NCBI GenBank assembly: GCA_005889405.1
Contig: VBFY01000058.1
Location: 1-64,000 of the forward strand
Source of the DNA: Chloroflexota bacterium
Lineage (GTDB): Bacteria > Chloroflexota > Limnocylindria > P2-11E
DNA: 64,000 bases
Reading direction: 5' to 3'
Of this stretch, positions 6,748 through 63,601 are shown piece by piece; the first letter of the stretch is position 1; each line of letters opens with the position of its first letter. The position numbers and the translations under genes were made by a program. The notes below the pieces were generated by a model. The model worked only from the letters and a program-made list of their open reading frames with translations. It was not told where the DNA came from and searched no databases.

Positions 6748-6766
6748 GATAACGACAACGGATATC
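6748..6766. promoter_or_regulatory. 19-bp GATATC palindrome between divergent operons
   Basis: GATAACG-ACAAC-GGATATC. The site lies midway between the start of the metallophosphoesterase-like gene (6703) and GTG 6808 of the aminotransferase. The right arm overlaps a plausible -10 hexamer (TATCAT, 6763-6768) for the rightward operon. It is one of the copies of a motif shared across the window. Confidence 0.65.
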
Positions 6767-6807
6767 ATGGTGCTCCCAACCCGGCGCAGAAGGAAAAAGG
6801 AGGGCCC

Positions 6808-8130
6808 GTGGACGTCGCCTCGCCGCCGGTCTCCCCGCCCGCCTCCGCCCGCCGGCCGAAGGTCGCACCGGCGCTGCCGGGGCCGCGCGCCGCTGCGCTC
6901 GTCGCGCGCGACGCTGAGGCACTCTCGACCAGCTTCACTCGCCCGTACCCGCTCGCGATGGCGAGAGGTGAGGGGCTCTGGATTACGGACATCGACGGCA
7001 ACGAGTTCCTCGACTTCACCGCGGGTATCGCGGTCACGTCGACCGGCCACTCCCACCCGAAGGTCGTCGCCGCGATCGAGGAGCAGGTACGGAAGTTCCT
7101 GCACATGTCCGGAACCGACTTCTACTACGAGCCCGAAGTCCGTCTCGCCGAACGGCTCCAGGCGAGCGCGCCGGTGAAGGCGCCGGCGCGCGTGTTCTTC
7201 GCGAACTCCGGCGCCGAGACGATCGAGGGCGCCATCAAGCTCGCGCGCTGGGCGACGCGGCGCCCGCATTTCCTGGCGTTCACCGGCGCGTTCCACGGCC
7301 GCACCATGGGCGCGCTGTCGCTTACCGGCAGCAAGGCCGTGCAACGCGACGGCTTCGCGCCGCTCGTGCCGGGTGTCTTCCACGTCCCGTATCCGTCCGC
7401 GAGCCATGGCGGACCGTCGAGCGACGAGGTCTTCGAGCGCATCGATCAGCTGTTCCACACCCTCGCGAAGCCCGACAGCTTCGCCGCGATCTTCGTCGAG
7501 CCGATCCAGGGCGAAGGCGGGTACATCGTGCCACCCGACGACTTCCTCCCGCGTCTCCGCGCGCTCGCGTCGGAGCACGGGATCCTCCTCGTCGTAGACG
7601 AGATCCAGAGCGGCATGGGCCGGACGGGGAAGCTCTACGCGATCGAGCACTGGGGCGTCACCGCGGACATCGTCGTGCTCGCGAAGGGCATCGCCTCGGG
7701 ATTGCCGCTCGGCGCGATCATCGGGGGCGGCGGTGTGATGTCCTGGCCGCCAGGGGCGCACGGCAGCACGTTCGGCGGGAACCCCGTCTCCTGCGCCGCC
7801 GCGCTCGCAACGCTCGACCTCATCGAGGGCGGCCTGCAGGAGAACGCCGCGACGCGTGGGGTACAGCTTCGCGAGGGGCTCGGCGCGCTGGCTTCGCGCC
7901 ACGCCGCGATCACCGACGTCCGCGGGAAGGGCCTGATGGTGGCGTTCGAGGTCCGCACCCCGGCGCTCACGAACGCGGTCATGCAGCAGGCGTTCCGGCG
8001 GGGGCTCCTCGTGCTGCCCACCGGCGCACGTGCGATCCGTCTCTCGCCGGCGCTCACCGTATCGTCCGATGAGATCGCCGTCGCGCTCGAAATCCTCGAC
8101 GCGTCCTGCGCCGCAGCCGCGGCGGCCTGA
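6808..8130 (+). CDS. class III PLP aminotransferase (GabT/ArgD/Lat-like)
   Basis: A 440-residue fold-type I aminotransferase that moves an omega-amino group to 2-oxoglutarate or pyruvate. Visible are ANSGAETIEGAIKLAR (phosphate-binding), GAFHGRTMGALSLTGS, the PLP aspartate in LLVVDEIQSGMGRTGK, the PLP lysine in VLAKGIASGLPLGA and HGSTFGGNPVSCAAA. GTG 6808 is preferred because AGGAGG lies four bases upstream; the ATG at 6718 would place the operator inside the gene. It leads a nine-gene operon. The next gene, an ALDH7-type dehydrogenase, suggests the product is a semialdehyde (for example from lysine, ornithine or GABA). ArgD-like members of this class can also act as succinyl-DAP aminotransferase, relevant given LysA downstream. 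Confidence 0.9.
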   Translation: MDVASPPVSPPASARRPKVAPALPGPRAAALVARDAEALSTSFTRPYPLAMARGEGLWITDIDGNEFLDFTAGIAVTSTGHSHPKVVAAIEEQVRKFLHMSGTDFYYEPEVRLAERLQASAPVKAPARVFFANSGAETIEGAIKLARWATRRPHFLAFTGAFHGRTMGALSLTGSKAVQRDGFAPLVPGVFHVPYPSASHGGPSSDEVFERIDQLFHTLAKPDSFAAIFVEPIQGEGGYIVPPDDFLPRLRALASEHGILLVVDEIQSGMGRTGKLYAIEHWGVTADIVVLAKGIASGLPLGAIIGGGGVMSWPPGAHGSTFGGNPVSCAAALATLDLIEGGLQENAATRGVQLREGLGALASRHAAITDVRGKGLMVAFEVRTPALTNAVMQQAFRRGLLVLPTGARAIRLSPALTVSSDEIAVALEILDASCAAAAAA

Positions 8131-8143
8131 CGAGGGGGACCAG

Positions 8144-9727
8144 ATGACCGTCACCGAGCTCGCACCGACCCACGCCGCGCGCGATGCGCAGGTCGCGAAG
8201 ATCCTCGCCGCGTTCGGCATGACCCCAGGCACCGCGCTCTCCGGCGTCGCCTCGGGCGGACGCTTCGCGCCCGAGCCACGCGGAGCGGTCCTCGAGACCT
8301 TCGATCCGACGACGGGCGTCGTCCTCGCCCGCGTCCGCACGGCCGCGCCCGACGACTACACGGCGGCCGCGAAGGCGGCGCGTGCCGCGTTCGAGCGATG
8401 GCGGCTGGTGCCCGCGCCGCGACGCGGCGAGTTCGTGCGCCTCCTCGGCGAACGGTTCCGCGGGCGCAAGGAGGACCTCGCTCGGCTCATCAGCGTGGAG
8501 AACGGGAAGATCCTCTCGGAGGCTCGCGGCGAGGTCCAGGAAGTCATCGACATGTGCGACCTCGCGGTCGGCCAGTCGCGGCAGCTCTTCGGACGGACCA
8601 TCGTCTCGGAGCGGCCGCAGCACCGCATCGTCGAGAACTGGCATCCGGCCGGCATCGTCGGGATCATCTCCGCCTTCAACTTCCCGGTCGCCGTGCCAGG
8701 CTGGGGCTGGTCGCTCGCCCTTGTCTGCGGCGACAGCGTGCTGTGGAAGCCGTCGAGCCTCACGCCGCTCGCGTCGATCGCGTGTCAGCAACTGTTCCAC
8801 GACGTGACGAACGGCACCGAGGCGGAGGGCGTGTTCTCGCTGGTGAACGGCGCTGGCGCTACCGTGGGCGAGCTGCTCCTCGCCGACGCGCGCGTGCCCC
8901 TCGTGCAGGCGACCGGCTCGTGCGCGCTCGGCGAGCGTGTATCCGCCTCGGTCGGGAAGCGCGGCGCGCGCGCGATCCTCGAGCTCGGCGGCAACAACGC
9001 CGTGGTCGTCCTCGACGACGCGGATCTCGATCAGGCGCTCGCGTCGGTCGTCTTCGGCTCGGTCGGCACCGCCGGCCAGCGCTGCACGACGACGCGCCGG
9101 CTGATCCTCCAACGCGGCATCGCGAAGCGCTTCGTGGATCGCATGCTCGGCGCATACCGCACGGTCCAGATCGGCGATCCGCTCGACGAGCGAACGCTCA
9201 TGGGCCCGCTCATCTCGGCGCAGGCGGTGACGGACTACCGGAACGGCATGGCCGAGATCCGGCGCCAGGGCGGCGACGTGCTCTGTGGCGACGTGGTCCT
9301 CGATCGACCGGGCTACTTTGTCGCGCCGACGATCGTGCGATCGAGAGCCGACATGCCCGTGGTCGCGGACGAGATCTTCGCGCCGATACTGCACGTCTTC
9401 GAGGTCGAGACGCTCGACGAGGCGATCGCGCTGAACAACGCGGTGCCGCAGGGCCTCTCGAGTGCCATCTTCACACGCGATCTGCACGCGGCCGAGCGCT
9501 GGCTCTCCGCGGCCGGCGCCGACACCGGGCTCGCGAACGTGAACGCCGGGACGAGCGGCGCCGAGATCGGCGGTGCCTTCGGCGGGGAGAAGCTCACCGG
9601 CGGCGGGCGCCAGGCTGGGTCGGACGCGTGGAAGGGATATATGCGCCGGCAGACGAGCACCGTGAACTTCGGGACGCAGGTCGTGCTGGCGCAGGGCGTG
9701 CGGTTCGACGTGGAGGAGAAGCCTTGA
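8144..9727 (+). CDS. aldehyde dehydrogenase, ALDH7 (antiquitin/AmaB) type
   Basis: A 527-residue NAD(P)-dependent aldehyde dehydrogenase. The Rossmann region (IISAFNFPVAVPGWGWSLAL), the glutamate motif (LELGGNNAVVV), the catalytic cysteine (GTAGQRCTTTRRL) and the C-terminal signature (GAEIGGAFGGEKLTGGGR, then GSDAWKGYMRR) are typical of the antiquitin family, which oxidises alpha-aminoadipate semialdehyde/piperideine-6-carboxylate in lysine catabolism. A G-rich ribosome site precedes ATG 8144. It follows the aminotransferase by 13 bases and overlaps the LysA start. Together they fit transamination of a terminal amine followed by oxidation of the semialdehyde. Confidence 0.9.
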   Translation: MTVTELAPTHAARDAQVAKILAAFGMTPGTALSGVASGGRFAPEPRGAVLETFDPTTGVVLARVRTAAPDDYTAAAKAARAAFERWRLVPAPRRGEFVRLLGERFRGRKEDLARLISVENGKILSEARGEVQEVIDMCDLAVGQSRQLFGRTIVSERPQHRIVENWHPAGIVGIISAFNFPVAVPGWGWSLALVCGDSVLWKPSSLTPLASIACQQLFHDVTNGTEAEGVFSLVNGAGATVGELLLADARVPLVQATGSCALGERVSASVGKRGARAILELGGNNAVVVLDDADLDQALASVVFGSVGTAGQRCTTTRRLILQRGIAKRFVDRMLGAYRTVQIGDPLDERTLMGPLISAQAVTDYRNGMAEIRRQGGDVLCGDVVLDRPGYFVAPTIVRSRADMPVVADEIFAPILHVFEVETLDEAIALNNAVPQGLSSAIFTRDLHAAERWLSAAGADTGLANVNAGTSGAEIGGAFGGEKLTGGGRQAGSDAWKGYMRRQTSTVNFGTQVVLAQGVRFDVEEKP

Positions 9728-11070
9728 GCATTCCCGTTATCGCGGCCGGCGACATCTTCCCGGACACGACGAGGATCGACCGCGGCCATCTCGTTGTCGG
9801 CGGCTGCGATATGGCTGACCTCGCGGCGCGCTACGGCACGCCGCTCTATGTGTTCGATGAGGCGAGCATTCTCGCGCGGGCCCGCGGCTATCGTGACGCC
9901 CTCGCGCGCAGCTACCCCGGCGCGTCGATCGTCTGCTACGCCTCGAAGGCCTACTCCGCGCCCTGGATCCTGTCGCTCCTCGCCGACGAGGGCGTCGGCC
10001 TCGACGTCGTCTCCGCCGGCGAGCTCTTCGTCGGTGCGAAGGTCGACTTCCCCCGCGAGCGCATCTACTTCCACGGCAACAACAAGGGCGAGGACGAGCT
10101 GCGCCTCGCGCTCGCGGAGCGCGTCGGGCGCATCGTCGTGGACAACCTCGACGAGGTCCGCCTCCTCGCCCGGCTCGCGGTGGAGCGCGGGGTCCGGCCC
10201 GCGGTCCTGCTCCGGGTCTCGCCCAGCGTCGACGCGCACACGCACGCGCACCTCACGACGGGCAATCTCGACACGAAATTCGGCCTGGGCATCGAGTCGG
10301 GCGCCGCGGCTGAGGGCGTGGGCGCGATCCTTCAGGAGCCTGCGCTCGATCTCCGCGGCTATCACGCGCACATCGGCTCGCAGATCCACGAGATCGAGCC
10401 GTATGAGGCCGAGGTCGAGCGTCTCTTCGCCTTCGCGAAGGAGATGCGTGAGGAGCGGGGCGTCGCGCTGCGTGAGATATCGCCGGGCGGCGGGTTCGGC
10501 GTGCGCTATACGACGGAGGACCCGGCGGTGAAGGCGGCCGACATGATCGGCCGCGTCGGCGCGGTGGTCGCCGCCGCGGCGAAGAAGTTCGGCTTCGACC
10601 GGCTGCCCGAGGTGAGCATCGAGCCGGGGCGGTCGATGGTGGCGAACACCGCGATCGCGCTGTATCGCGTCGGCTCGGTAAAGCGCATCCCGGGTGGACG
10701 CACGTACGTCGCTGTCGACGGCGGGATGGCCGACAACATCCGGCCCACCGCGTATGGGGCGAAGTACTCCGCCGTCCTCGCGGGTCGCGTTGACGACACG
10801 CGTACGACCGACGTCGCGATCGCGGGGAAGTACTGCGAGACCGGCGACATTCTCATCCAGCACATCGAGCTGCCGCTTCCTCGCGTCGGTGAGCTCATCG
10901 CTGTCCCGACCGCGGGGGCGTACCACCTGTCCATGGCGAGCAACTACAACATGGCGCTCCGTCCGGCGGTCGTCGTGGTCGCGAACGGAAGGTCGCGCCT
11001 AGTCCGACGCCGCGAGACGTTCGAGGATCTTCTCGCGCCCGAGATCGCCGGCGAGGCTGTGAAGGCCTGA
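9724..11070 (+). CDS. lysA: diaminopimelate decarboxylase
   Basis: A 448-residue fold-type III PLP decarboxylase that converts meso-diaminopimelate to L-lysine. The PLP lysine K75 sits in CYASKAYSA; also visible are HIGSQI, the glycine-rich phosphate-binding segment SPGGGFGV, EPGRSMVANT, and CETGDIL (Thr for the usual Ser in CESGD). DNIRPTAYGAKYSA is as in LysA rather than ornithine decarboxylases. The start is TTG 9724, overlapping the ALDH stop, with GAGGAG seven bases upstream; the much longer frame upstream is a shadow of the ALDH gene. Its place between a semialdehyde dehydrogenase and acyl-CoA genes, under the same palindrome as the DapF homologue, links it to diaminopimelate or lysine metabolism. 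Confidence 0.9.
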   Translation: MSIPVIAAGDIFPDTTRIDRGHLVVGGCDMADLAARYGTPLYVFDEASILARARGYRDALARSYPGASIVCYASKAYSAPWILSLLADEGVGLDVVSAGELFVGAKVDFPRERIYFHGNNKGEDELRLALAERVGRIVVDNLDEVRLLARLAVERGVRPAVLLRVSPSVDAHTHAHLTTGNLDTKFGLGIESGAAAEGVGAILQEPALDLRGYHAHIGSQIHEIEPYEAEVERLFAFAKEMREERGVALREISPGGGFGVRYTTEDPAVKAADMIGRVGAVVAAAAKKFGFDRLPEVSIEPGRSMVANTAIALYRVGSVKRIPGGRTYVAVDGGMADNIRPTAYGAKYSAVLAGRVDDTRTTDVAIAGKYCETGDILIQHIELPLPRVGELIAVPTAGAYHLSMASNYNMALRPAVVVVANGRSRLVRRRETFEDLLAPEIAGEAVKA

Positions 11071-27057: not shown

Positions 27058-27086
27058 TTGGCGACCGCGTTAAGGGGGGTGATCAG

Positions 27087-36821: not shown

Positions 36822-36840
36822 GATATCGGCTTACGATACT
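36822..36840. promoter_or_regulatory. 19-bp GATATC palindrome
   Basis: GATATCG-GCTTA-CGATACT, between the divergent membrane-protein gene (start 36799) and the quinone-reductase fragment/chrA unit (start 36851). A rightward -10 candidate, TACGAT (36832-36837), overlaps the right arm. Confidence 0.65.
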
Positions 36841-37116: not shown

Positions 37117-38370
37117 ATGGCCGAGGATCGCGCGGTGGCAGCGGCAGACGCGACGCACGGCCGGGCCACCGCGCCCGCGAGCAGGGCCGGCGCGGTGCTC
37201 GAGGTCCTTGGTGTTGCGCTGCGGCTCGGGCTGACCTCGTTCGGTGGGCCGATCGCGCACATCGGCTACTTCCGCGCCGAGTACGTGCAGCGTCGGGGCT
37301 GGGTCGACGAGGCGACCTTCGCCGACCTTGTCGCGCTCGCGCAGTTCCTGCCCGGAGCGGCATCGAGCAAGCTCGGCATCATGCTCGGGACCCTGCGCGT
37401 CGGTCTGTGGGGCGGGCTCGCCGCGTGGGTCGGCTTCACGCTCCCGTCGGCGATCGCTCTCGTCATCTTCGCGTACGGCGCCCGGAGCATCGGTCCGGAG
37501 GCGGCGGGCTGGTTGCACGGCCTCAAGATCGTGGCGGTCGCGGTCGTCGCACAGGCCGTCTGGAGCATGGCGCGGAATCTCGCGTGGGACCGCTCGCGCG
37601 GAACGATCGCGCTGCTCGCCGCCGCGGCGACGCTCGCGTTCCCTTCGAACGCCGCGGCCCAGGTGGTGGTCATCGTCATCGCGGGTCTCCTGGGTCTGCG
37701 GTTCCTCGGGTCGATGGCCATCGAGGACCGGCCGCACATTCGTGTACCGATCGGCCGCACCATCGCCTTCAGCGCGCTCGGGGTATACCTCGTGCTCCTC
37801 GTCCTGCTGCCGCTCCTGCGCCAGGCGTTCTCGCTCCAGCCGATCGCCGTCGTGGACTCCTTCTTCCGCTCGGGCGCTCTGGTGTTCGGAGGTGGCCACG
37901 TGGTCTTGCCCCTGCTCCAAGCCGAGGTCGTCCCGCCGGGCTGGCTCTCGAACGAGCAGTTCCTCGCGGGGTACGGTGCGGCGCAGGCGGTCCCTGGGCC
38001 ACTCTTCACGTTCGCCGCCTACCTCGGCGCCTCTCTCGGTCCCGAGCCGAACGGCGTCGCCGGCGCCGCGCTCGCGCTCGTCGCGATCTTCCTGCCCTCG
38101 TTCCTCCTCGCGTATGTGGCGCTCGGCTCGTGGGGCATGCTCCGCTCCCGCCCGGCGGTCCAGGCGACGCTGCGGGGGATCAATGCCGGTGTGGTCGGCC
38201 TGTTGCTCGCGGCCCTTTACACCCCGGTCTCGACGAGCGCGATCGCGCGTCCGCTCGACTTCGCGCTCGCGCTCCTCGCCTTCGGCCTGCTCATCGCGTG
38301 GAAGGCACCGCCCTGGATCGTGGTACTGCTCACAGCTGCTGCGGGGGCGCTGCTCCAGTCGCTCGGCTGA
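37117..38370 (+). CDS. chrA: chromate transporter, two-domain ChrA
   Basis: A 417-residue membrane protein with two homologous CHR domains. The first shows LGLTSFGGPIAHIGYFRAEY and ALAQFLPGAASSKLGIMLG; the second shows GALVFGGGHVVLPLLQAE and GYGAAQAVPGPLFTFAAYLG. These duplicated FGGP and PGP motifs define ChrA, which exports chromate (or sulfate-like oxyanions) from the cytoplasm. It starts two bases after the quinone-reductase fragment stop and converges on an EntS-like exporter. It is probably read from the palindrome-bearing promoter at 36822. Confidence 0.93.
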   Translation: MAEDRAVAAADATHGRATAPASRAGAVLEVLGVALRLGLTSFGGPIAHIGYFRAEYVQRRGWVDEATFADLVALAQFLPGAASSKLGIMLGTLRVGLWGGLAAWVGFTLPSAIALVIFAYGARSIGPEAAGWLHGLKIVAVAVVAQAVWSMARNLAWDRSRGTIALLAAAATLAFPSNAAAQVVVIVIAGLLGLRFLGSMAIEDRPHIRVPIGRTIAFSALGVYLVLLVLLPLLRQAFSLQPIAVVDSFFRSGALVFGGGHVVLPLLQAEVVPPGWLSNEQFLAGYGAAQAVPGPLFTFAAYLGASLGPEPNGVAGAALALVAIFLPSFLLAYVALGSWGMLRSRPAVQATLRGINAGVVGLLLAALYTPVSTSAIARPLDFALALLAFGLLIAWKAPPWIVVLLTAAAGALLQSLG

Positions 38371-39721: not shown

Positions 39722-40690
39722 TCACCGTCCGGCGATGCCGAGCTTCTCGAGTCCGACGCGGATCGCCCGCTGTTCCGCGGGGCCTCCCGGCGTCCCCATC
39801 GGCACGCCGTGACGCTCGCGGACGAGCGCCAGGCGGTCGTCGGCCGGGAGGAATGGGCAGTTCGCGCACAGCCGACCGAGCCGGTCGGAGAGATAGAAGG
39901 TGACGCAGCACACCCCGCGAACGTGGTGACCGTGCGGGAGGTCGGATGCCGGATCGGACCAGGTGAGGAGACTGGTCAGCGGGTTCGGCCCCGCGACCCC
40001 CGGGAGCACGGCCGCGCCGAGGACCGCGATCCGGTCCTCGACGAACGGCGCCGCGGCCGCGGGGGAGAGGTACTCGTCGGCGGTGTCGGACGTGAGCCCG
40101 ACCCACTCCGCCGCGTTGGTCCACATCAGGCGGGGGGAGACCTTCGTGATCTCGCGGGCCCGCTCGAAGAGGGGCGCGATGTTCTCGGCGTAGAGCTTGC
40201 GCCACACGTACGCGCGCAGCTCCGCGAGCGTCGGCACGATCGGCCCGGTCGCCGGGAGCGTCGTCGGACGCTCCGCGCAACGCATGGCCTCGTCCTCGCG
40301 GAGGTCGAGCGTCACGAGGAAGGGGATGTTGCTGCGGACGATGAGCCTGCATCGGGACGCGGAGAGGTCCAGGCCCACACCTCGGGCCAGCGCGACGAGC
40401 GCCACCGCGGAGATCGATGATGAGTATTGGCGCGTGAAGCGCGACACCGCGATGCGCAGGTCGGCATCGGCACCGTCGTCCGGGAGCTCGACCCCGTCGA
40501 CGTGATGTTTCGCATGCGCCTGCGTCGAGGCGGCGCGGGCGATCGCCGCGCGCAGGAAGTCGACATCGAGATATCGTTCCGCCGGAACGACCTCGTCCGT
40601 CGGCGCGGGCTCGGAGACAAGCCTGCCCTCAAACCATCGCTGGAGCTCGCCGAGCTGGGCGATCAGGGCGGTCGCGAGCGGGCCGCTCAT
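39722..40690 (-). CDS. FhuF-like ferric-siderophore reductase family protein (copy 1)
   Basis: A 322-residue protein with the FhuF architecture: a helical N-terminal region resembling the siderophore-binding part, and a C-terminal 2Fe-2S motif with cysteines 261, 262, 275 and 278 (GVCCVTFYL, then RLCANCPFL), i.e. CC-x12-C-x2-C. E. coli FhuF has CC-x10-C-x2-C. FhuF reduces ferric siderophores in the cytoplasm to release iron. The segment LPGVAGPNPLTSLLTW is also found, with small changes, in the paralogue at 48932. It is divergent from the Opp operon across the palindromes at 40716 and 40822. Confidence 0.75.
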   Translation of the reverse strand: MSGPLATALIAQLGELQRWFEGRLVSEPAPTDEVVPAERYLDVDFLRAAIARAASTQAHAKHHVDGVELPDDGADADLRIAVSRFTRQYSSSISAVALVALARGVGLDLSASRCRLIVRSNIPFLVTLDLREDEAMRCAERPTTLPATGPIVPTLAELRAYVWRKLYAENIAPLFERAREITKVSPRLMWTNAAEWVGLTSDTADEYLSPAAAAPFVEDRIAVLGAAVLPGVAGPNPLTSLLTWSDPASDLPHGHHVRGVCCVTFYLSDRLGRLCANCPFLPADDRLALVRERHGVPMGTPGGPAEQRAIRVGLEKLGIAGR

Positions 40691-40715: not shown

Positions 40716-40734
40716 GATATCGCCTAACGTTATA
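40716..40734. promoter_or_regulatory. 19-bp GATATC palindrome, FhuF/Opp intergenic, copy 1
   Basis: GATATCG-CCTAA-CGTTATA, 26 bases before the FhuF-like start on the minus strand; a further GATATC immediately to its left overlaps it. Confidence 0.65.
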
Positions 40735-40821
40735 GATGCGCAAGTCTACCTTCGCCGGGCGCTCCCAGCGGCGGGGGCGGCGCCTGACGGTCCGCGCGGC
40801 GGGGGTCTTGCATCGGCAGCC

Positions 40822-40840
40822 GATATCGCCGAACGTAAAC
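40822..40840. promoter_or_regulatory. 19-bp GATATC palindrome, FhuF/Opp intergenic, copy 2 (weaker)
   Basis: GATATCG-CCGAA-CGTAAAC. The left arm is perfect and the right arm keeps CGTAAAC. It lies 82 bases before the Opp permease start and is almost exactly 106 bases from copy 1, on the same face after ten helical turns. Confidence 0.5.
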
Positions 40841-40921: not shown

Positions 40922-41914
40922 GTGCTGACCTATCTCGCCCAGCGGATCGGCCTCGGCATCCTGACGATCTGGGTGGTATCCGTCCTGTCCTTCGTCATCA
41001 TCCAGTTGCCGCCGGGGGACTACGTCTCCACCTACCTGGCGCAGCTCGCGGAGCAGGGCAGCACCGCGTCCGCGGCCGAGGCCGAGAGCCTGCGTGTCGA
41101 ATACGGCCTCGATCAGCCGGTCTACGTCCAGTACGCGAAGTGGGTCTTCCAGATGGTCCAGGGCAACTTTGGCATGTCGCTCGACTGGAAGCGGCCCGTG
41201 GCGGACGTCATCGGCGACCGCCTTGCGCTCACGATGATCGTCACCGTGGCCGCGATCCTGTTCACCTGGATCCTCGCGCTCCCCATCGGGATCTACTCCG
41301 CCGTTCGCCAGTACTCCGTCGCGGACTATATCTTCACGTTCCTCGGCTTCCTCGGCCTCGCGGTGCCGAGCTTCCTCCTTGCGCTCGTCCTCATGTACTT
41401 CGGCTTCGTCGTGCTCAACGCAAACATCGGCGGGCTCTTCTCGCCGGAGTACGCGGACGCCCCGTGGAGCCTCGCGAAAGCCTGGGATCTGGCGCAGCAT
41501 CTTCCGATCCCGGCGCTCGTGCTCGGCCTCGCGGGGACCGCGCAGCTGGTGCGGATCATGCGTGCGAACCTGCTCGACGAGCTGCGCAAGCCGTATGTGA
41601 TCACCGCGCTCGCGAAGGGTCTCAGCGAGCGGCGGGCGATCCTCAAGTACCCGGTGCGCGTCGCCCTCAACCCCTTCGCGAGCTCGATCGCGTTCCTGTT
41701 CCCACAAGTCGTCTCGGGTTCGATCATCGTCTCGCTCGTGCTCAGCTTGCCGACCGTCGGTCCGCTGCTGCTCCGGGCGTTACTCGCGCAGGACATGTTC
41801 CTCGCGGGCACGATCGTGATGCTCATCGGGGTGTTGACCGTCATTGGGATACTCGTCTCGGACCTCATTCTCATGTGGCTCGACCCCCGGATCAGGTTGT
41901 ACGGGCGCCGCTGA
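40922..41914 (+). CDS. Opp/Dpp-family ABC transporter permease (OppB-like)
   Basis: A 330-residue inner-membrane permease. VLTYLAQRIGLGILTIWVV opens the protein, as usual for DppB/OppB; the GDYVSTYLAQ region, and the EAA loop containing ALAKGLSERRAILKYPVRVAL, are present, with about six membrane helices. GTG 40922 is chosen; the longer frame from ATG 40736 would include two operators. It forms a channel for peptides, nickel chelates, opines or other short organic ligands with the next gene. First of a four-gene operon. Confidence 0.9.
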   Translation: MLTYLAQRIGLGILTIWVVSVLSFVIIQLPPGDYVSTYLAQLAEQGSTASAAEAESLRVEYGLDQPVYVQYAKWVFQMVQGNFGMSLDWKRPVADVIGDRLALTMIVTVAAILFTWILALPIGIYSAVRQYSVADYIFTFLGFLGLAVPSFLLALVLMYFGFVVLNANIGGLFSPEYADAPWSLAKAWDLAQHLPIPALVLGLAGTAQLVRIMRANLLDELRKPYVITALAKGLSERRAILKYPVRVALNPFASSIAFLFPQVVSGSIIVSLVLSLPTVGPLLLRALLAQDMFLAGTIVMLIGVLTVIGILVSDLILMWLDPRIRLYGRR

Positions 41915-43104
41915 TGGCCACGGCCGCGAACATCGTCGTCACCCCGGTCGAGACGCCTCCGCCCGCGGCGCCGCCCGCTCCGACCGCCCCCGGGCTCGTC
42001 GACGGCCGCGTCGCCGAGGAGCGCGTGTCGGTCGCCTCGCAGTGGCAGCTCATGTGGTGGCGGTTCCGGAAGCATCGCCTCGCGATGGTGAGCGCCGGTA
42101 TCGTCGCGCTCTTCTACCTCGGGGTGATCTTCGCCGACTTCCTGGCGTACGCCGATCCGTACGCCTCCGAGGGGCAGCGCACCCTCCTTCCGCCCCAGGC
42201 CATCCACCTCTTTGACGACGGGCGCTTCGCGCCGTTCGTCTACGGCATCAAAGGCGAGCGGGATCTCACGACGTTCAAGCGCGTATACGTCGAGGACACG
42301 AGCCGGAAGCTGTACGTCCGTCCTTTCGCGACGGGGTTCGACTACAAGCTGCTCGGGTTCATCCCCACGAACATGCATCTCATCGGGCTCGACGGCGCGC
42401 CGACCGAGACGAACCTCTTCCTTCTCGGCGGTGACCTGCAGGGCCGCGATCTGTGGTCGCGCCTCATGTACTCGACGCAGACCTCGCTCACCATCGGCCT
42501 GGTGGGCGTCACGCTGAGTCTGCTGTTCGGCGTCGTGCTCGGCGGCATCGCGGGCTACTACGGCGGCTTCGCCGACACCGTGATCCAGCGGCTCATCGAG
42601 GTCCTGTTCTCCATCCCATCCATCCCGCTGTGGATGGGCCTCGCCGCCGCGATGCCGAGGGACTGGGGCATCGTGCAGGTCTACTTCGCGATCACCGTCA
42701 TCATCTCGCTCATCGGCTGGACGACGCTCGCGCGGGTCGTGCGCGGGCGTTTCCTGTCGCTCCGCGATGAGGACTTCGTCAAGGCCGCCGAGCTCGCGGG
42801 CGCGGGCCCGTGGCGGATCATCTTCGTGCATCTGGCGCCGCTCTTCCTCAGTCACATCATCGCCGCGACGACGCTCGCCCTGCCCGCGATGATCATCAGT
42901 GAGACCGCGCTCAGCTTCCTGGGGCTGGGCCTGCGTCCACCGGCCATGAGCTGGGGGGTGCTGCTCCAGCAGGCGCAGAACGTCCAGACCGTCGCGCTTT
43001 CACCTTGGCTGATGATCCCGGCGATCCCGGTGACGATCGTGATCCTCGCGTTCAACTTCCTGGGGGACGGCCTCCGCGACGCCGCGGACCCATATGGTGT
43101 GTAG
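41914..43104 (+). CDS. Opp/Dpp-family ABC transporter permease (OppC-like)
   Basis: A 396-residue permease. After an N-terminal cytoplasmic tail the OppC_N helix appears (WWRFRKHRLAMVSAGIVAL), then a long periplasmic insert (residues about 70-165), and the core with GRDLWSRLMYSTQTSLTIG, the EAA loop KAAELAGAGPWRIIFVHLAP and the C-terminal FLGDGLRDAADP. It couples by TGATG overlap to the upstream permease. The large insert is longer than usual for OppC but occurs in some Chloroflexota and Thermotogae members. Confidence 0.9.
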   Translation: MATAANIVVTPVETPPPAAPPAPTAPGLVDGRVAEERVSVASQWQLMWWRFRKHRLAMVSAGIVALFYLGVIFADFLAYADPYASEGQRTLLPPQAIHLFDDGRFAPFVYGIKGERDLTTFKRVYVEDTSRKLYVRPFATGFDYKLLGFIPTNMHLIGLDGAPTETNLFLLGGDLQGRDLWSRLMYSTQTSLTIGLVGVTLSLLFGVVLGGIAGYYGGFADTVIQRLIEVLFSIPSIPLWMGLAAAMPRDWGIVQVYFAITVIISLIGWTTLARVVRGRFLSLRDEDFVKAAELAGAGPWRIIFVHLAPLFLSHIIAATTLALPAMIISETALSFLGLGLRPPAMSWGVLLQQAQNVQTVALSPWLMIPAIPVTIVILAFNFLGDGLRDAADPYGV

Positions 43105-44159
43105 ATGAGCGCGAACATGGCGCTCCTCTCCGTGCGCGACCTGAGGACGTACTTCGTCGCCGACGAGGGGACGACGCGTGCCGTGGATGGCGCGACGTTC
43201 GACCTGTACGCCGGCAAGACGCTGGGCATCGTCGGCGAGACCGGCTGCGGGAAGAGCGTGACCGCTCGCTCGATCCTGCGGATCGTCGAGCGGCCGGGCC
43301 GGATCGTCAGCGGCGAGATCCTTCTGCAGCGCGACGGCGGCTACATCGATCTCGCGAAGCTCGATCCCGACGGCCGCGAGATCCGGCGGGTGCGGGGTGG
43401 GGAGATCGGGCTGGTCTTCCAGGAGCCGATGACCTCCTTCAGCCCGGTGCACACCGTGGGCGACCAGGTCATCGAGGCCATCCAGCTGCACCGGCGTCTC
43501 GACAAAGCGCGCGCGCGCGCGCGCGCGATCGAGCTGTTCCGGATGGTCGGCATCTCGCGGCCCGAGGGCCGGCTCGACGAGTACTCGTGGCAGCTCTCCG
43601 GCGGTCTGCGCCAGCGCGCGATGATCGCGATGGCCCTCGCTGCCGAGCCGCGCCTGCTCATCGCCGACGAGCCCACGACGGCGCTCGATGTGACGACCCA
43701 GGCGCAGATCCTCGAGCTCCTACGGGACCTGCAGCGCAAGACCCACATGGCGATCATGCTGATCACGCACGACCTCGGCGTCATCGCCGAAATGGCCGAC
43801 GATGTGGTGGTGATGTACCTCGGCCGCGTCGTCGAGCACGGTCCGGTCGACCAGATCTTCCATGCGCCGAAACATCCGTACACCCAGGCCTTGCTCCGCT
43901 CCATCCCGGGGATCCAGCACGAGGCGCGCGTGAAGCTGCCGACCATCAGCGGATCGATCCCGCATCCGTTCGCGCGGCCGGCCGGGTGTCCGTTCCACCC
44001 GCGGTGTGCGTTGGTCATGGCCTGCGCCGCCGCCCCGGACGGCGTCTGCTGCGATCATCACGAGCCCGAGCTCATCACCGTCGAGGAAGGGCACAGCGTG
44101 AGCTGCCATCTCTACCGGAAGAAGGGCGCCGCCGTGCCTCTCGCCCTGGAGTCCGCACG

Positions 44160-44163
<4 letters not shown>
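43105..44163 (+). CDS. Opp/Dpp-family ABC ATPase (OppD-like)
   Basis: A 352-residue ATP-binding subunit: Walker A GETGCGKS (residues 44-51), Q-loop VFQEPMTSFSPV, signature LSGGLRQRAMIAMA, Walker B LLIADEPTTALD, and switch His in LITHDLGVI. The C-terminal oligopeptide-transporter domain has the Cys-rich segment GCPFHPRCALVMACAA. It begins right at the OppC stop. A 21-base alternating GC run (43507-43527) encodes an Ala-Arg repeat and could be slippage-prone. Confidence 0.93.
43507..43527. repeat. alternating (GC) tract of 21 bases inside oppD
   Basis: The run codes for Ala-Arg repeats between the Q-loop and the signature motif. Replication slippage by one repeat unit (2 bases) would shift the frame, and such tracts can adopt Z-DNA. 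The frame is intact here. Confidence 0.6.
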
Positions 44164-45272
<1,109 letters not shown>

Positions 45273-46261: not shown

Positions 46262-46280
46262 GGTATCGGCTTTCGATATC
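46262..46280. promoter_or_regulatory. 19-bp GATATC palindrome
   Basis: GGTATCG-GCTTT-CGATATC between two divergent genes. TATCAT (46277-46282) begins in the right arm and ends eight bases before ATG 46291, so the CCG gene may be leaderless with its -10 overlapping the operator. Confidence 0.7.
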
Positions 46281-46290: not shown

Positions 46291-47460
46291 ATGACGACGG
46301 AATCTTCCGCGACCCCTGAAGCCGTCCCTCCGACGGCGCCGACCATCGGCGACTACTCGTATCCCGACTTCTACCGCGCGATGCTCGAGCGCGAGCGGAT
46401 GCAGGTCGCGAAGGACGAGGTCCGCTGGACGGAGAAGCACCGCGAGCCCGAGCGTGCGGTCGACGTCCTCCTGAACTTCGGGTGCAACGTGCGCCAGACC
46501 CCGCACCTGATGCGGGACGCGGTCGCCATCCTGGAGACGCTCAAGGTCGACTTCGCGGCGGTCGCCGGCCAGCAGTTCTGCTGCGGCAAGCCGTACAGCA
46601 ACGCGAAGTTTTCCGACGCGGCGCGGAGCGTCGTGGAGGCGTCGGTGAAGCGGATGGCCTCGTACCGTCCGACGCGGGCGATCCAGTGGTGCTCCGCCTG
46701 CGAGATGCAGTTCCACGACATCGTCATTCCGGAGGTCGGGATCGAGTTCCAGAGCGACGGCTTCGCCGCCTACCTGGTCGAACGGCTCGACGAGATGGGA
46801 TCCGACGTGCCGTGGAAGCGCGATGTGCGGATCAAGGCGGTCGTGCACGGGCACCTCGGTGAGCACGTCGTGCGCGACGCGCACCCGCCGATCGTCATGG
46901 AGCTGCTGCGGCGGATCCCCGGCGTCGAGGTCGTGCGCTATGCCGACACGCCCGCGCTCCAGATCTGCGACAACGCCGGGATCAAGATCCGCAACATCGG
47001 GTCGTCGGAATACCGTGCCGTGCAGGGCGACCTCGAGTCCTACCTCTCCGAGCACGGCGCCGACACGCTCGTCACGATGTACCACAGCTGCACGCGCGAG
47101 CTGAGCAAGTTCGCCAGCGACAGCCTGCGCATCAACCACTACGTCGCCGTGCTCGCGCGCGCCCTCGGCGTGGAGCAGCCAGACCGGTTCTCCGAGTACT
47201 GGCGCCTCGGCGACCCCGCGAAGGTCGTGGCCGCGTCTCGCCGCAACTGGGAATCGTGGGGCTGGACCGAGCCTGAGGCCTACGCGCTCGCGCACAAGTA
47301 CTTCGTGCCCAGCTACGTCGAGGCACCCGAGTGCCCCTGCAACGGGGCGTGCTCGCGGACGGGGGCCGCGTGGCTCAGCGCGAACAAGATCGAGCGTGGG
47401 ACCGCGCTGCCGGTGATCGACCCATTCACCCAGAAGGTCGCGCAGCGCGACCTCGTGTGA
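46291..47460 (+). CDS. HdrB-type CCG-domain iron-sulfur protein without HTH
   Basis: A 389-residue protein with one CCG module of the same spacing as its two paralogues: C65, CC at 97-98 and CSAC at 134-137 (C-x31-CC-x35-C-x2-C). The C-terminal region has YRAVQGDLESYLSEHGADT, the MYHSCTRELSKFASD block and a Cys-rich tail (ECPCNGACS). Unlike the copies at 19374 and 61744 it has no helix-turn-helix; its first 45 residues are a Pro-rich tail and a helix. It likely binds a 4Fe-4S cluster and could be a redox subunit. It is followed 20 bases later by the second Lrp/AsnC gene. Confidence 0.8.
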   Translation: MTTESSATPEAVPPTAPTIGDYSYPDFYRAMLERERMQVAKDEVRWTEKHREPERAVDVLLNFGCNVRQTPHLMRDAVAILETLKVDFAAVAGQQFCCGKPYSNAKFSDAARSVVEASVKRMASYRPTRAIQWCSACEMQFHDIVIPEVGIEFQSDGFAAYLVERLDEMGSDVPWKRDVRIKAVVHGHLGEHVVRDAHPPIVMELLRRIPGVEVVRYADTPALQICDNAGIKIRNIGSSEYRAVQGDLESYLSEHGADTLVTMYHSCTRELSKFASDSLRINHYVAVLARALGVEQPDRFSEYWRLGDPAKVVAASRRNWESWGWTEPEAYALAHKYFVPSYVEAPECPCNGACSRTGAAWLSANKIERGTALPVIDPFTQKVAQRDLV

Positions 47461-48765: not shown

Positions 48766-48909
48766 GACCAGCGGCCTCGCACATCCTTGACGCTACGGGA
48801 GCGGCGGGCGTGATTTCGCCTGGCGGTGCCGGGTGCGGACCTGGACATTGCATCCATAGGCGGTCCTTCGCTCGCAGAGTCCGACGCAGACACTGCGATT
48901 CTGTTCTGC

Positions 48910-48928
48910 GATATCGTGTGCCGCTATA
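48910..48928. promoter_or_regulatory. 19-bp GATATC palindrome
   Basis: GATATCG-TGTGC-CGCTATA, ending three bases before the annotated ATG 48932 of the FhuF-like gene. There is no room for a ribosome site, so the mRNA is leaderless or starts translation downstream (GTG 48947). Confidence 0.55.
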
Positions 48929-58040: not shown

Positions 58041-58239
58041 TGAGCGAGGTCGTGACGGGTTGCAGCGAAGGATGCCGAAGTACCTCTAGCTTGCAACCTG
58101 ACAAGCCCTCGCGCTGGACTTTTTCGACCGGCCCAGCATCGACCATTCGACCGCGATCCTGCCTCCGGCGGGACCTGGAGCAGTGGACGGACTCGCGATC
58201 CCCGAGGACGGCAGCACAACGGGTAGTGGAGGGATGAAC
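58041..58239. other. 199-base intergenic region before the binding-protein gene
   Basis: No gene, palindrome or clear terminator. The only T-run (GGACTTTTT, about 58119-58127) is not preceded by a strong stem. It presumably holds the promoter of the binding-protein gene. Confidence 0.35.
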
Positions 58240-60445: not shown

Positions 60446-61672
60446 CTATCCGTGCCTCGCCGGCTCCGTCCGCCAGTGCCGACCCGACCAGCGGTGCGCT
60501 GGCGCAAGGGCAAGCAGGATCACGGCGACGCCGATGACGATCGCGCCGTTCAGCGCCAGCGCCCACGCCGCGCCACCCAGGCTCACCAGCGTTCCGGCTT
60601 CGAGCTGACCGAGCGGGCCGGAGCCGATGCTGAGGAGGTAGACCCCCATGGCCCGTCCACGTTGGCTGACGGGTACGGCGAGCTGCATGAGCGTGTACTG
60701 CAAGACGTCGAACGCGCCGTTGCATACGCCGACGACGAGCATGATCGCAACCGCCATCGCAACGCTCGTGCTCGCCCCGAGGGCGATGAGCGACGCGCCG
60801 AAGGCGGCGGCCGACAGGCTGAGGAGCGGCTCACGACGGACGCGCGCCGGCAGAAGTGACAACGCCACGACGGCGACGGTCGCGCCCACCGACGCCGAGC
60901 CCGTGAGCGCGCCGAGGGCCTGCGGACCCGATCGCAGGACATCGCGCACGAGGACGGGCACGGCGGAGCTGAACGAGTACGCGAAGACCTCAGCCGCGAT
61001 GGCGGCGAGCGCGAGCGTGCGGAGCGTGGGCACGTCGAGCACGAGGCGCGTGGCCTCCCGCAGCGCGAGCGCGAACGGAATGGCGACCCATTCGGCGGAG
61101 TCGGCTCGCCGCACGCGGAGCGGAAGCACGAACGCGGCGGCGAGCGCGTACGCGACGCCGACAGCGAGGTAGCACGCCGCCGTCCCGAAGGTCGCGATAA
61201 GCGCGCCGCCGGCGAACGCGCCGGCGGCCTTCGACAGCCGGTCGCCGAGCGACACGCTGGCGACGGCGTTCGGCGCGATCTCGCGTCCCGCGATGTCGAG
61301 CGCGAGCGCCTGACGCGCGGGAATGTCCATCACTTGAAGACACCCGTTCGCAAGGCCGATCGCGATCACCTGCCACGGCACGAGGCCCACCGTCGCGACG
61401 AAGTAGGTGACGGCAGTCATCACGCTCACGCCGGAGACGGCCGTCGCAAGAAGGATTGCGCGACGATCGAACCGGTCGGCGATGGTCCCGGCGGTGAGCC
61501 CGAAGAGGAGCTTCGGGAGCGAGCGCGCCGCGAGCGCGGCACCGACCGCGAGCGGTCCGCCCGCCGTCAGGGCGAGCCACGAGGTGGCCGTGAGCTCGAG
61601 ATGCTGCGCCGCGCCGACGCCGAGCGTTGACAGCCAGAGCCATCTGAAACCGGGGGACCGCATGAGGGACAC
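60446..61672 (-). CDS. EntS-like MFS exporter (MFS_3 family, copy 2)
   Basis: A 408-residue MFS carrier related to the protein at 38374. AAQHLELTATSWLALTAGG in helix 1, GLTAGTIADRFDRRAILLAT after helix 2 and SLGDRLSKAAGAFAGGALIA are typical of the EntS/MFS_3 group. Start GTG 61672 (ATG 61663 is an alternative) has no ribosome site; the GATATC palindrome is 15 bases upstream, and TATCAT (from its arm) may be a -10 for a very short leader. It lies downstream of the CCG gene at 61744 but has its own promoter. Confidence 0.85.
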   Translation of the reverse strand: MSLMRSPGFRWLWLSTLGVGAAQHLELTATSWLALTAGGPLAVGAALAARSLPKLLFGLTAGTIADRFDRRAILLATAVSGVSVMTAVTYFVATVGLVPWQVIAIGLANGCLQVMDIPARQALALDIAGREIAPNAVASVSLGDRLSKAAGAFAGGALIATFGTAACYLAVGVAYALAAAFVLPLRVRRADSAEWVAIPFALALREATRLVLDVPTLRTLALAAIAAEVFAYSFSSAVPVLVRDVLRSGPQALGALTGSASVGATVAVVALSLLPARVRREPLLSLSAAAFGASLIALGASTSVAMAVAIMLVVGVCNGAFDVLQYTLMQLAVPVSQRGRAMGVYLLSIGSGPLGQLEAGTLVSLGGAAWALALNGAIVIGVAVILLALAPAHRWSGRHWRTEPARHG

Positions 61673-61686: not shown

Positions 61687-61705
61687 GATATCGCTTTTCG
61701 ATATC
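61687..61705. promoter_or_regulatory. 19-bp GATATC palindrome, perfect
   Basis: GATATCG-CTTTT-CGATATC, perfect 7-bp arms, between the exporter start (61672) and the CCG-protein stop (61744). Confidence 0.75.
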
Positions 61706-61743
61706 GTGCGGCCACATCTGGACCACGGCCGCGCGGTCGGGGG

Positions 61744-63072
61744 TCAGGCGGGTCGCACCGCTCCGCTCAGCACGTCGACCGAGATGAGTTGCTCCTGACA
61801 CCCGCCCTCGCCCCCGCACGCGCAGCGTGACGGGCCGTCCGCATAGGCAGGATCGAAGATCGCCTGAGCGAGCGTCCGCGCACGCTCCTCGCGCATCCCC
61901 CAGGAGCTCCACATCGGTCGCGTCTGTTCGAGGATCGCTTCCGGATCGCCGAGCTTGCACGCGGCCTGGTAGCGGTCCGGGCTCGCGCACCCAAGGGCGT
62001 CCGCAAGCAGCGATATCGGATGCCGGACCGCGAGGCGATCGCTGGAGAACCGCGACCACCACTGCTGGCCGGTGTGGTGCGTCGCGCTCATCGTGTCCGC
62101 ACCTCGCGCCGCGAACAGATCGGCCAGCCTCTCGCGTCGCCGCTCCACGTCGTGGCGCGAGAGTGCCGGGTCGTTCACGATCGTCTCCGCGTTCCCGTGC
62201 CCGGCGATGCGGTCGATCTCCGGGTCGACGAAGCCGACCACTTCGACTCCGGGGATCATCGCGAGAACGCGCGCGCACGTCTCGGTGGCCTCGACATGGA
62301 CGGGGCTGCCGCCGGCCCGCAGCACCAGCACCTTCGCCCCGACCTCGCGCTGCCAGGGCACGCGCTCGCCGAGCTTGCGCAGGGTTTGCTCGAGGAGCGT
62401 GTACATCTGCACGTTCGCGGGGAGCTGTGTGCCGAGCAGCCGCTCGCGGCGCTCGATCATGCTGAAGGTGTTCTGGCAGTTCGTGCACATGTGCGCGGTG
62501 AGCGAGGCTCCCCATGCGACGCTGCGCGCCACCGACGCCGCGTGCATGCGCTCTGCCTGTTTCAGGTCTTTGTAGTGGCGGTAGTACGTCCCGCAGCAGA
62601 AGAGGCGGCCGGCACCCGCGGCGAAGTTGACGCCGAGCGCCCGCAGCACGCCCACCGTATCGAGGATCAGGTGAGGCGTGTGCTGCGGGCCGCAGCTCAT
62701 GTTCACGAACACGTCAACCGCACCGTCGGGTGCGACGTTGCGCTCGATCCACACGGTCTCTTCCTTCGACACGAGGAGGTGGCCGGCATCCTCGAGGTCA
62801 CCCCAGAACCGCGCGTAGTTCGGCCGCTCGCGCGGGACGTCCGCGCCGATGTTCGCGAGCCACGCGTCGTACAAGCGCTGCGGCGCGATCCCAGCGAGCG
62901 CCGCGCAGATGCGCTCGAGCTCGTCGAGCGTCGGCAGGATGTCGCCGCCCTCGATGTGCGCGTACCACGAGGGCTCGATGCCAGCCAGGGACGCCAGCCG
63001 CTCGGGGGCGTCGAACCCGGCCCTGGTCCGCTCCTGCGCCAGGTGGTTGGGGTAGGGAACCGTCGCGGTCAT
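61744..63072 (-). CDS. HTH-CCG fusion protein (paralogue)
   Basis: A 442-residue paralogue of the protein at 19374. Residues 8-65 form the helical DNA-binding-like domain (LASLAGIEPSWYAHIEGGD, then ELERICAALAG). The CCG module has C127, CC at 159-160 and CTNC at 196-199 (C-x31-CC-x35-C-x2-C). The Cys-rich tail is CACGGEGGCQEQ followed by LISVDVLSG. Two copies with the same domain order show that the fusion is not an assembly accident. A redox- or iron-sensing regulator is possible; no GATATC palindrome lies at its own start. Confidence 0.8.
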   Translation of the reverse strand: MTATVPYPNHLAQERTRAGFDAPERLASLAGIEPSWYAHIEGGDILPTLDELERICAALAGIAPQRLYDAWLANIGADVPRERPNYARFWGDLEDAGHLLVSKEETVWIERNVAPDGAVDVFVNMSCGPQHTPHLILDTVGVLRALGVNFAAGAGRLFCCGTYYRHYKDLKQAERMHAASVARSVAWGASLTAHMCTNCQNTFSMIERRERLLGTQLPANVQMYTLLEQTLRKLGERVPWQREVGAKVLVLRAGGSPVHVEATETCARVLAMIPGVEVVGFVDPEIDRIAGHGNAETIVNDPALSRHDVERRRERLADLFAARGADTMSATHHTGQQWWSRFSSDRLAVRHPISLLADALGCASPDRYQAACKLGDPEAILEQTRPMWSSWGMREERARTLAQAIFDPAYADGPSRCACGGEGGCQEQLISVDVLSGAVRPA

Positions 63073-63147
63073 CCGCGGAACACTCTAGCGAGGACCTCCG
63101 GAAAGTTGTGACATCGGATGCGCCGATCCCAGCGATCGAGCGATTCG

Positions 63148-63225
63148 ATGGGACGTCACAAGGACGAGATCGTGGACCTCTATTCGCGGTTCGCGGCCGC
63201 CGAGATCGGCCGTCACGTCGAATGA
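63148..63225 (+). CDS. 25-codon frame, doubtful
   Basis: ATG 63148 to TGA 63225 reads with ordinary codon bias (KDEIVDLYSRFAAAEIGRH), which is unusual for chance in a GC-rich gap. No ribosome site and no recognised family; it may be the end of a lost gene. Confidence 0.15.
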   Translation: MGRHKDEIVDLYSRFAAAEIGRHVE

Positions 63226-63323
63226 CCCGGGGATCATCGCGCGGACCGATCGCTCCCATCCGATCATTCGATTGGTCACGCGACCTCGTCGTCCGTAGGC
63301 TCGGTGCCGGTCGGAGGTGTCTG

Positions 63324-63584
63324 GTGAGCACTGAGGGGTCGGGCACGTTCAGGCGCGTCCTGCGTCTGGTCTCCGAGCGCGCGCTGGGCGCGCAGCCCAC
63401 CGGATCCGCAAGCGGACCATCGGGCGACGGCACTCGGCGCCCCGGCGCTCTGCCCATGGCCTTGGACGGTTGCGTCGGCTGCGGAATGTGCGGTCGTCAC
63501 GCCGCCTCGCTCGACCCGCTCCGGGCCGCCCGCCACGTGCTCAGGGAACGTGCAAGCGCCGAGACCGAGCCACCGCTCACCTGA
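63324..63584 (+). CDS. small Cys-motif protein (CVGCGMC)
   Basis: An 86-residue frame starting at GTG 63324 with a strong GGAGGTG ribosome site seven bases upstream. Near residue 53 it reads DGCVGCGMCGRHA, like half of a ferredoxin-type cluster motif (CxxCxxC), without the fourth distal Cys-Pro. The N-terminal half has an amphipathic helix. It ends inside the palindrome at 63583. Its place between the CCG gene and LDH2 copy 3 suits a small iron-sulfur or metal-binding protein, but I recognise no family. Confidence 0.4.
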   Translation: MSTEGSGTFRRVLRLVSERALGAQPTGSASGPSGDGTRRPGALPMALDGCVGCGMCGRHAASLDPLRAARHVLRERASAETEPPLT

Positions 63585-63601
63585 TATCGGCTTCCGATAT
63601 C
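63583..63601. promoter_or_regulatory. 19-bp GATATC palindrome, perfect
   Basis: GATATCG-GCTTC-CGATATC, perfect 7-bp arms, 47 bases upstream of ATG 63649. TATCGT (63598-63603) overlapping the right arm is a possible -10. Confidence 0.75.

What the first reader, a model, noticed from the sequence alone, without database searches (positions are those of the whole stretch)
6748..63601. A 19-bp palindrome, GATATCG-N5-CGATATC, marks a scattered regulon
Copies at 6748, 36822, 40716, 40822 (weaker), 46262, 48910, 61687 and 63583 all lie between genes and within about 3-82 bases of start codons; two are perfect (61687, 63583). Arms and the 5-base spacer are constant at 19 bases. The genes controlled are the DapF homologue, the LysA operon, a membrane protein/chrA locus, both FhuF-like genes, OppBCDF, a CCG protein with Lrp, DapB, an EntS-like exporter and an LDH2 gene. 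This is seen in sequence. That one regulator reads all of them is inference; candidates in the window are the two Lrp/AsnC twins and the HTH-CCG proteins. An alternative is that the palindrome is a symmetric pair of outward -10 elements (TATCAT/TATCGT run out of the arms), i.e. a bidirectional promoter core.
Basis: partly seen in the sequence, partly recalled or inferred. Interest (0 to 1): 0.82.

Follow-up and report, generated by a model that had tools for sequence, protein, structure and literature searches.

The report
PadR repressor operator marks gene island
A short mirror-image DNA signal scattered over this stretch is probably the landing site of one small repressor of the PadR family, encoded just outside the window, and relatives of that repressor in several bacterial phyla often carry the same signal in front of their own genes.

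Summary
The palindrome is real and far above chance. It occurs in ten intergenic regions of one 95.6-kb contig, C32, of a Chloroflexota genome; elsewhere in that genome it lies mostly inside genes. The best-supported reader is neither an Lrp twin nor an HTH-CCG protein, but a PadR-family regulator at C32:76446-76922, 12.4 kb past the window, with tandem copies before its own gene. This PadR occurs in 2 of 20 genomes of the order searched, the same two that carry the CCG protein, FhuF and DapB genes. In 23 of 26 homologous PadR loci of other Chloroflexota the motif stands at the gene's start (shuffles: mean 0.3, largest 3); on plasmids of three other phyla, 12 of 18. An unseeded palindrome search of the 26 regions ranks TATCG-N5-CGATA first. 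Nearest named relatives are Rv3488 and ChrI, whose chrI-chrA1 operon is induced by chromate. Nine literature searches showed no such operator. About ten promoters carry it here, over an island with diaminopimelate enzymes, FhuF-like proteins, an Opp importer, exporters and chrA. Binding, repression and inducer are inferred.

The parts
6748..6766 (.). operator copy between a metallophosphoesterase-DapF pair (-) and an aminotransferase/ALDH/LysA run (+)
   Evidence: 2 mismatches; matrix score 19.0; genes
36822..36840 (.). operator copy between a small membrane protein (-) and a short ADH-like frame followed by chrA (+)
   Evidence: 2 mismatches; score 24.7; chrA over its NCBIfam cut-off
40716..40734 (.). 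operator copy before the FhuF-like gene 39722-40690 (-), which is followed by an MFS carrier
   Evidence: 2 mismatches; score 25.0
40809..40840 (.). weak tandem operator copies (40809 and 40822, 13-bp step) before the Opp permease/ATPase genes (+)
   Evidence: 3 mismatches each; scores 12.4 and 12.8
46262..46280 (.). operator copy between an LLM oxidoreductase gene (-) and the CCG-protein/Lrp genes (+)
   Evidence: 1 mismatch; score 23.8; the G010 orthologue of the CCG gene also has a copy in front
48910..48928 (.). operator copy before FhuF-like, DapB and PrpD-family genes (+)
   Evidence: 2 mismatches; score 20.4; a weak 13-bp-step neighbour at 48897 scores 9.0
61687..61705 (.). perfect operator copy before an EntS-like MFS carrier (60446-61672, -)
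   Evidence: 0 mismatches; score 29.7, highest on the contig
63583..63601 (.). perfect operator copy before an LDH2-family gene (C32:63649-64716, +, runs out of the window)
   Evidence: 0 mismatches; score 27.7
5098..5922 (-). DapF, likely target
   Evidence: TIGR00652 249 bits, cut-off 114.65
9724..11070 (+). LysA, likely target at a distance, in the run that follows the 6748 copy
   Evidence: TIGR01048 426 bits, cut-off 297.9
37117..38370 (+). chromate efflux transporter ChrA, likely target
   Evidence: TIGR00937 321.7 bits, cut-off 171.7
39722..40690 (-). FhuF-like protein, likely target
   Evidence: PF06276 26.1 bits, cut-off 25.2; below the FhuF equivalog cut-off
40922..45272 (+). Opp-type ABC importer permeases and ATPases, likely targets
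46291..47460 (+). CCG-domain protein, likely target; found in 2 of 101 relatives
   Evidence: PF02754
48947..50658 (+). FhuF-like protein and DapB, likely targets
   Evidence: DapB TIGR00036 175 bits, cut-off 122
60446..61672 (-). EntS-like MFS carrier, likely target
   Evidence: PF05977 123.5 bits; EntS model 66.9 of 324 bits, below its cut-off

Best explanation
The palindrome is the operator of a PadR-family repressor of the Rv3488/ChrI type, encoded on the same contig at C32:76446-76922, outside the window. A PadR dimer would read one TATCG-N5-CGATA palindrome; tandem copies share the middle CGATATCG at a 13-bp step and could hold a second dimer. The site lies on or just after the -10, so bound protein would block its own gene and about ten promoters of this island until an inducer, plausibly a toxic oxyanion or metal such as chromate, releases it. 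Shown: the motif, its placement, its conservation in front of this PadR subfamily in four phyla, co-inheritance of PadR and motif-linked genes. Inferred: binding, repression rather than activation, two dimers on tandem sites, the inducer.
For: PadR domain PF03551 69.1 bits. Tandem copies end 62 bp before the padR start. Among 20 genomes of the same order or closer only G000 and G010 have this PadR (71% identity), the same two that have the CCG protein, FhuF and DapB. In G010 copies stand before padR, between the Opp genes and a divergent LLM/DapL-like/DapF run, and before the CCG gene. 23 of 26 other Chloroflexota PadR loci have a copy with up to 3 mismatches at the gene start (21 with up to 2); shuffles mean 0.3, largest 3; 4 of 324 other windows of the same loci. 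21 of these 23 have a second copy exactly 13 bp away, counting up to 4 mismatches. Unseeded palindrome count: TATCG-N5-CGATA first, 10 of 26 loci, largest value in 20 shuffled sets 2. 12 of 18 plasmid loci from Pseudomonadota, Bacillota and Actinomycetota; shuffles mean 0.2, largest 2. chrA is a likely target here and stands near padR in 8 of 26 Chloroflexota loci, a 77362-like MFS gene in 9 of 26.
Against: No binding data. 3 of 26 Chloroflexota loci and 6 of 18 plasmid loci lack a copy with up to 3 mismatches at padR. In G010 the copies on C19 score low (9.2, 6.5, 3.7, against 17.6 before CCG), and the fetched FhuF and DapB contigs of G010 have no copy. The training sites of the matrix were selected by resemblance to the window's consensus; the unseeded count is the answer to that. 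NCBIfam's Rv3488 cut-off is not reached (108 of 140 bits). The known PadR operator, ATGT-N8-ACAT, is different.
Confidence: 0.84

Rival explanations
1. An Lrp/AsnC twin (47480-48007 or 27054-27608) reads the palindrome; a 5-N5-5 inverted repeat is a usual shape for that family (recalled, not from a call).
For: The gene at 47480 follows the CCG gene behind the 46262 copy. The twins are 70% identical.
Against: G010, which has the motif, has only a distant Lrp (35%). Lrp homologue loci L055-L064 have no copy just upstream. The motif goes with PadR in genomes chosen for PadR alone.
Confidence: 0.05
2. The palindrome is a symmetric bidirectional promoter core, two outward -10 elements.
For: At 46262, 6748 and 61687 an arm runs into TATCAT close to the start codon.
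Against: A core promoter should be genome-wide; this motif is concentrated on one contig and its copies elsewhere are mostly inside genes. In 9 of 23 PadR loci it begins 19-29 bp after the first base of a TTGACA-like box, so it covers or follows the -10.
Confidence: 0.05
3. An XRE-type HTH fused to a CCG protein (for example 61744-63072) reads the palindrome.
For: HTH_31 in 61744; CCG genes are confined to G000 and G010 among 101 relatives.
Against: The two other genomes with CCG hits in the phylum sample (G250, G396) are not among the 24 other PadR-bearing genomes, most of which have the motif before padR. No C32 matrix hit of 9.0 or more lies within 500 bp upstream of the XRE-CCG genes 19374, 61744 or 68868 (starts).
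Confidence: 0.03

Closest known systems
ChrI, PadR-family regulator of the chrI-chrA1 operon of Bacillus cereus SJ1 (PMC2936356, passages read)
   Same: PadR-family gene linked to a ChrA chromate exporter; the paper reports chrI and chrA1 co-transcribed and induced by Cr(VI). Here chrA has an operator copy in front, and several plasmid padR genes with the motif adjoin chrA.
   Different: I compared no ChrI sequence, and the passages give no operator for it. In this genome chrA lies about 39 kb from padR and about nine other intergenic regions carry the motif.
Rv3488 (PDB 5zhc), PadR-family regulator of Mycobacterium tuberculosis
   Same: Best solved relative by sequence (E 2.6e-31); said to act in countering toxic metal stress (passage of PMC7474061).
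   Different: Below the NCBIfam equivalog cut-off, 108 of 140 bits. Its operator was not looked up: the paper cited for it (Kumari 2018) is not held and was not read.
PadR, LmrR and LadR repressors with the ATGT-N8-ACAT operator (PMC4517056, passages read)
   Same: Same protein family; control of own and neighbouring promoters through an inverted repeat.
   Different: Other half-site (TATCG against ATGT), odd-length centre (19 bp against 16 bp), 13-bp tandem register.

Membership tests
PadR family | PadR winged-helix domain over the Pfam cut-off | tested here: met
   PF03551 69.1 bits, cut-off 27
PadR family | binds the canonical ATGT-N8-ACAT operator | tested here: not met
   The repeat conserved before these genes is TATCG-N5-CGATA; the canonical form is from a passage of PMC4517056. 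ATGT-N8-ACAT did not appear among the top 12 unseeded palindromes, but 4-base arms were not scanned
Rv3488 equivalog (NCBIfam NF053635) | score over the curated cut-off | tested here: not met
   108.1 of 140 bits; 0 of 151 class genomes over the cut-off
ChrI type (padR-chrA operon) | padR adjoins chrA | tested here: not met
   In G000 chrA is at 37117-38370 and padR at C32:76446. In other genomes a chrA-like gene lies in the 1.5-kb flanks of 8 of 26 loci
ChrI type (padR-chrA operon) | chromate induces the operon | not testable with these tools
   reported for B. cereus SJ1 (passages of PMC2936356)
Lrp/AsnC regulon | motif conserved before orthologous lrp genes | tested here: not met
   no copy just upstream in L055-L064
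staphylopine-type metallophore system | CntA-type binding protein over the cut-off, plus nicotianamine-synthase-like and opine-dehydrogenase enzymes | tested here: inconclusive
   CntA model 51.5 of 800 bits for 58234-60324, not met. The enzyme pair did not appear among genes scanned with Pfam, but not every gene of the contig was scanned

The most novel reading that the evidence does not exclude
A ChrI/Rv3488-type PadR, often next to a single pump elsewhere, has become master regulator of a laterally acquired system that makes, exports, re-imports and reduces a diaminopimelate- or lysine-derived metal chelator: DapB, DapL-like, DapF and LysA making the precursor, EntS-like carriers exporting it, Opp importing it, FhuF-like and CCG proteins reducing it, all under one metal or oxyanion signal.
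Probability: 0.14. Interest if true: 0.82.

Novelty: new variant of a known kind. Interest (0 to 1): 0.64.

Why it matters
It gives a predicted operator, TATCG-N5-CGATA in 13-bp tandem register, for a PadR subfamily found here in four phyla and often on plasmids beside chrA, and for which nine searches of the held library showed no operator. That makes many padR-chrA, padR-MFS and padR-permease/DoxX loci testable with one short DNA probe. It also offers a candidate case of regulon expansion, from a repressor that often sits by one pump to about ten promoters of an island.

Tried and rejected
Lrp twins and HTH-CCG proteins as the regulator: rejected on co-occurrence and upstream sequence. Outward -10 pair: rejected as the main reading. 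The search for related loci with a FhuF-like protein found no relative; with the CCG alignment it found two contigs, both of the G010 isolate. G010's FhuF and DapB contigs were checked for the operator and had none. The NCBIfam Rv3488 model matched none of the 14 named control genomes, so that gave no named comparison. Nine literature searches listed nothing I recognised as this operator; most hits were seen as listings only, and passages were read in PMC4517056, PMC2936356, PMC6624303, PMC7474061 and PMC10655114. In PMC6624303 ATATCG occurs only in the oligonucleotide table.

Considered: C32 as a wrongly binned contig. The assembly has 4.64% contamination. Mean tetranucleotide correlation of C32 with other pieces of the bin is 0.919, against 0.937 among those pieces and 0.839 between C32 and two congeners, one 20-kb piece each. 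It looks native or ameliorated, but this is no proof. The operator claim does not depend on it.
Full report
What was checked. The window is bases 1-64000 of contig C32 (95,592 bases) of a 3.05-Mb, 114-contig genome, G000. Its phylum is taken as Chloroflexota from the same-family genome G010: a contig of the same number, length and match is VGPA01000137.1, titled Chloroflexi bacterium isolate K_Offshore_80m_m2_157.

Matches with up to 3 mismatches in the window: 16, against 2.87 by shuffling. Genome-wide there are 25 places with up to 2 mismatches, 11 on C32, which is 3.1% of the bases (binomial 9e-11, though overlapping tandem copies are not independent). Of the 14 elsewhere, 12 lie in long frames with clear codon-position bias and two are unclear. 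Further copies are at C32:76352/76365, 78640 and 82353/82366, which gives ten intergenic regions over about 76 kb. Several are tandem: two palindromes share the central CGATATCG at a 13-bp step.

Relatives. Copies with at most 1 mismatch occur in 16 of 61 genomes: five in G000, all on C32, and one or two in each of 15 others. The one in G010 (C137:409-427) ends 21 bp before the ATG of the gene for the CCG-protein orthologue, 69% identical. The CCG protein was found in 2 of 101 genomes. FhuF was found in 2 of 31, with the G010 hit below the family cut-off. DapB was found in 6 of 21, but within the same order in only 2 of 14, G000 and G010. The four CCG, four FhuF-like and two DapB hits of G000 are all on C32. 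So these likely targets are patchy in the order.

The regulator. C32:76446-76922 encodes a PadR-family protein (PF03551, 69.1 bits), and a tandem copy of the motif ends 62 bp before its start. Of 31 genomes searched, 6 have a match: G000, G010 (71% identity) and four class-level genomes with weak hits; among the 20 genomes of the same order or closer only G000 and G010 do. In G010 padR follows OppD/OppF-like genes on the same strand. One site lies directly before padR and another between the Opp genes and a divergent run of LLM, DapL-like and DapF genes. A third copy precedes what I read by eye as a remnant of the molybdopterin oxidoreductase gene that has a copy in G000 at 78640. These three score lower (3.7, 9.2 and 6.5) than the one before CCG (17.6). 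The fetched G010 contigs with FhuF and DapB have none.

The decisive test. A profile of the two PadR proteins found homologues in 25 of 400 Chloroflexota genomes, G000 included. With one more locus, I examined 26 loci outside G000 and G010. 23 of 26 have the motif with up to 3 mismatches (21 with up to 2) between -120 and +60 of the match start. 200 rounds of dinucleotide shuffling give 0.3 loci on average and at most 3, and 4 of 324 other windows of the same loci have one. The misses are L077, L081 and L100; L081 has a tandem pair about 1.4 kb upstream, perhaps at the head of an operon. 21 of the 23 have a second copy, counting up to 4 mismatches, exactly 13 bp away. An unseeded count of all exact 5-base inverted repeats with spacers 0-20 ranks TATCG-N5-CGATA first, in 10 of 26 loci; the largest count in 20 shuffled sets is 2. 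Loci of weak PadR hits (L068-L073) and of Lrp homologues (L055-L064) have no copy just upstream.

Outside the phylum. tblastn of the PadR against plasmids gave 1874 records, all under 60% identity, 40 listed. I fetched 18, chosen by hand for spread, from Pseudomonadota, Bacillota and Actinomycetota. 12 of 18 have a site with up to 3 mismatches at padR (8 with up to 2); shuffles give 0.2 on average and at most 2. The unseeded count again ranks TATCG-N5-CGATA first, in 6 of 18, this time without a shuffled control. Of the six misses, four have a 4-mismatch site. In one, padR follows chrA and a 3-mismatch site precedes chrA. One (Salinimonas) has none. In a Rhodococcus and a Streptomyces plasmid 1-mismatch copies stand before amino-acid permease genes near padR.

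Independent matrix. A matrix from 43 sites of the 26 loci was run on C32 and on 199 kb of other G000 contigs. The 19 C32 hits of 9.0 or more are all intergenic or at a gene edge; the control has 2. Caveat: the training sites were chosen by resemblance to the window's consensus.

Size of the regulon. Among 26 PadR-bearing genomes searched for copies with at most 1 mismatch, 11 have none, 13 have one or two, and two very large genomes have three (11 Mb) and five (8.9 Mb). G000 has five in 3.05 Mb, all on one contig. Because many real sites have 2-3 mismatches, this does not measure the other regulons; that G000's regulon is expanded is an inference. In the 1.5-kb flanks of padR, 8 of 26 loci have a chrA-like gene and 9 of 26 a 77362-like MFS gene.

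Mechanism. In 9 of 23 loci the first site begins 19-29 bp after the first base of a TTGACA-like box with at most 1 mismatch; 13 of 23 have such a box in the region examined. The site therefore covers or follows the -10. With its place before padR itself and the behaviour of known PadR repressors (passages), repression is the likeliest action. The best solved relative is Rv3488, said to counter toxic metal stress (passage). The functional parallel is ChrI, whose operon with chrA1 is induced by Cr(VI) (passages); I did not compare its sequence. Among 37 aligned PadR rows H53, H57 and H75 (G000 numbering) are invariant, possible ligands by inference; padR loci L084 and L087 were not in that alignment.

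What the island does is open. Likely targets include DapF, LysA, two DapB (both over the equivalog cut-off; a site precedes the one at 49858 through its FhuF-like neighbour, and none was found for the one at C32:74823), a DapL-like aminotransferase (over a subfamily cut-off; site at 82353), chrA (over its cut-off), FhuF-like proteins (the two tested lie below the FhuF equivalog cut-off) and EntS-like carriers (the one tested is below the EntS cut-off). Since close relatives gave no DapB hit, a use outside cell-wall making is possible. A secreted chelator is my boldest reading, at low probability.

Verdict. Observation confirmed; a single regulator supported; the named candidates and the promoter-core alternative not supported. 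The find is a predicted operator for a widespread PadR subfamily, with what looks like an unusual expansion of its regulon.

Noticed in passing
window 19374-20759, 46291-47460, 61744-63072 and C32:68868-70259: Four paralogous CCG-domain proteins, at least one with an N-terminal HTH (61744); found in 2 of 101 relatives and 3 of 400 phylum genomes. Function unknown.
   Followed up: partly
window 27054-27608 and 47480-48007: Two Lrp/AsnC regulators, 70% identical, with no close counterpart in the relatives searched.
   Followed up: partly
window 49858-50658 and C32:74823-75632: Two DapB genes beside FhuF-like genes; no DapB hit in the 12 other same-order genomes searched apart from G010.
   Followed up: partly
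window 36851-37114: Short frame that by eye resembles the C-terminal part of the ADH at C32:71313-72281, perhaps a gene remnant behind the 36822 operator.
   Followed up: no
L108:5651-5682 and L110:3039-3070, 4844, 7273: On Rhodococcus and Streptomyces plasmids the same palindrome stands before genes near padR: amino-acid permeases, DoxX and a hypothetical gene.
   Followed up: partly
L074:2300-3140: In G010 the start of a molybdopterin oxidoreductase gene, broken soon after, keeps an operator-like copy in front (read by eye).
   Followed up: no
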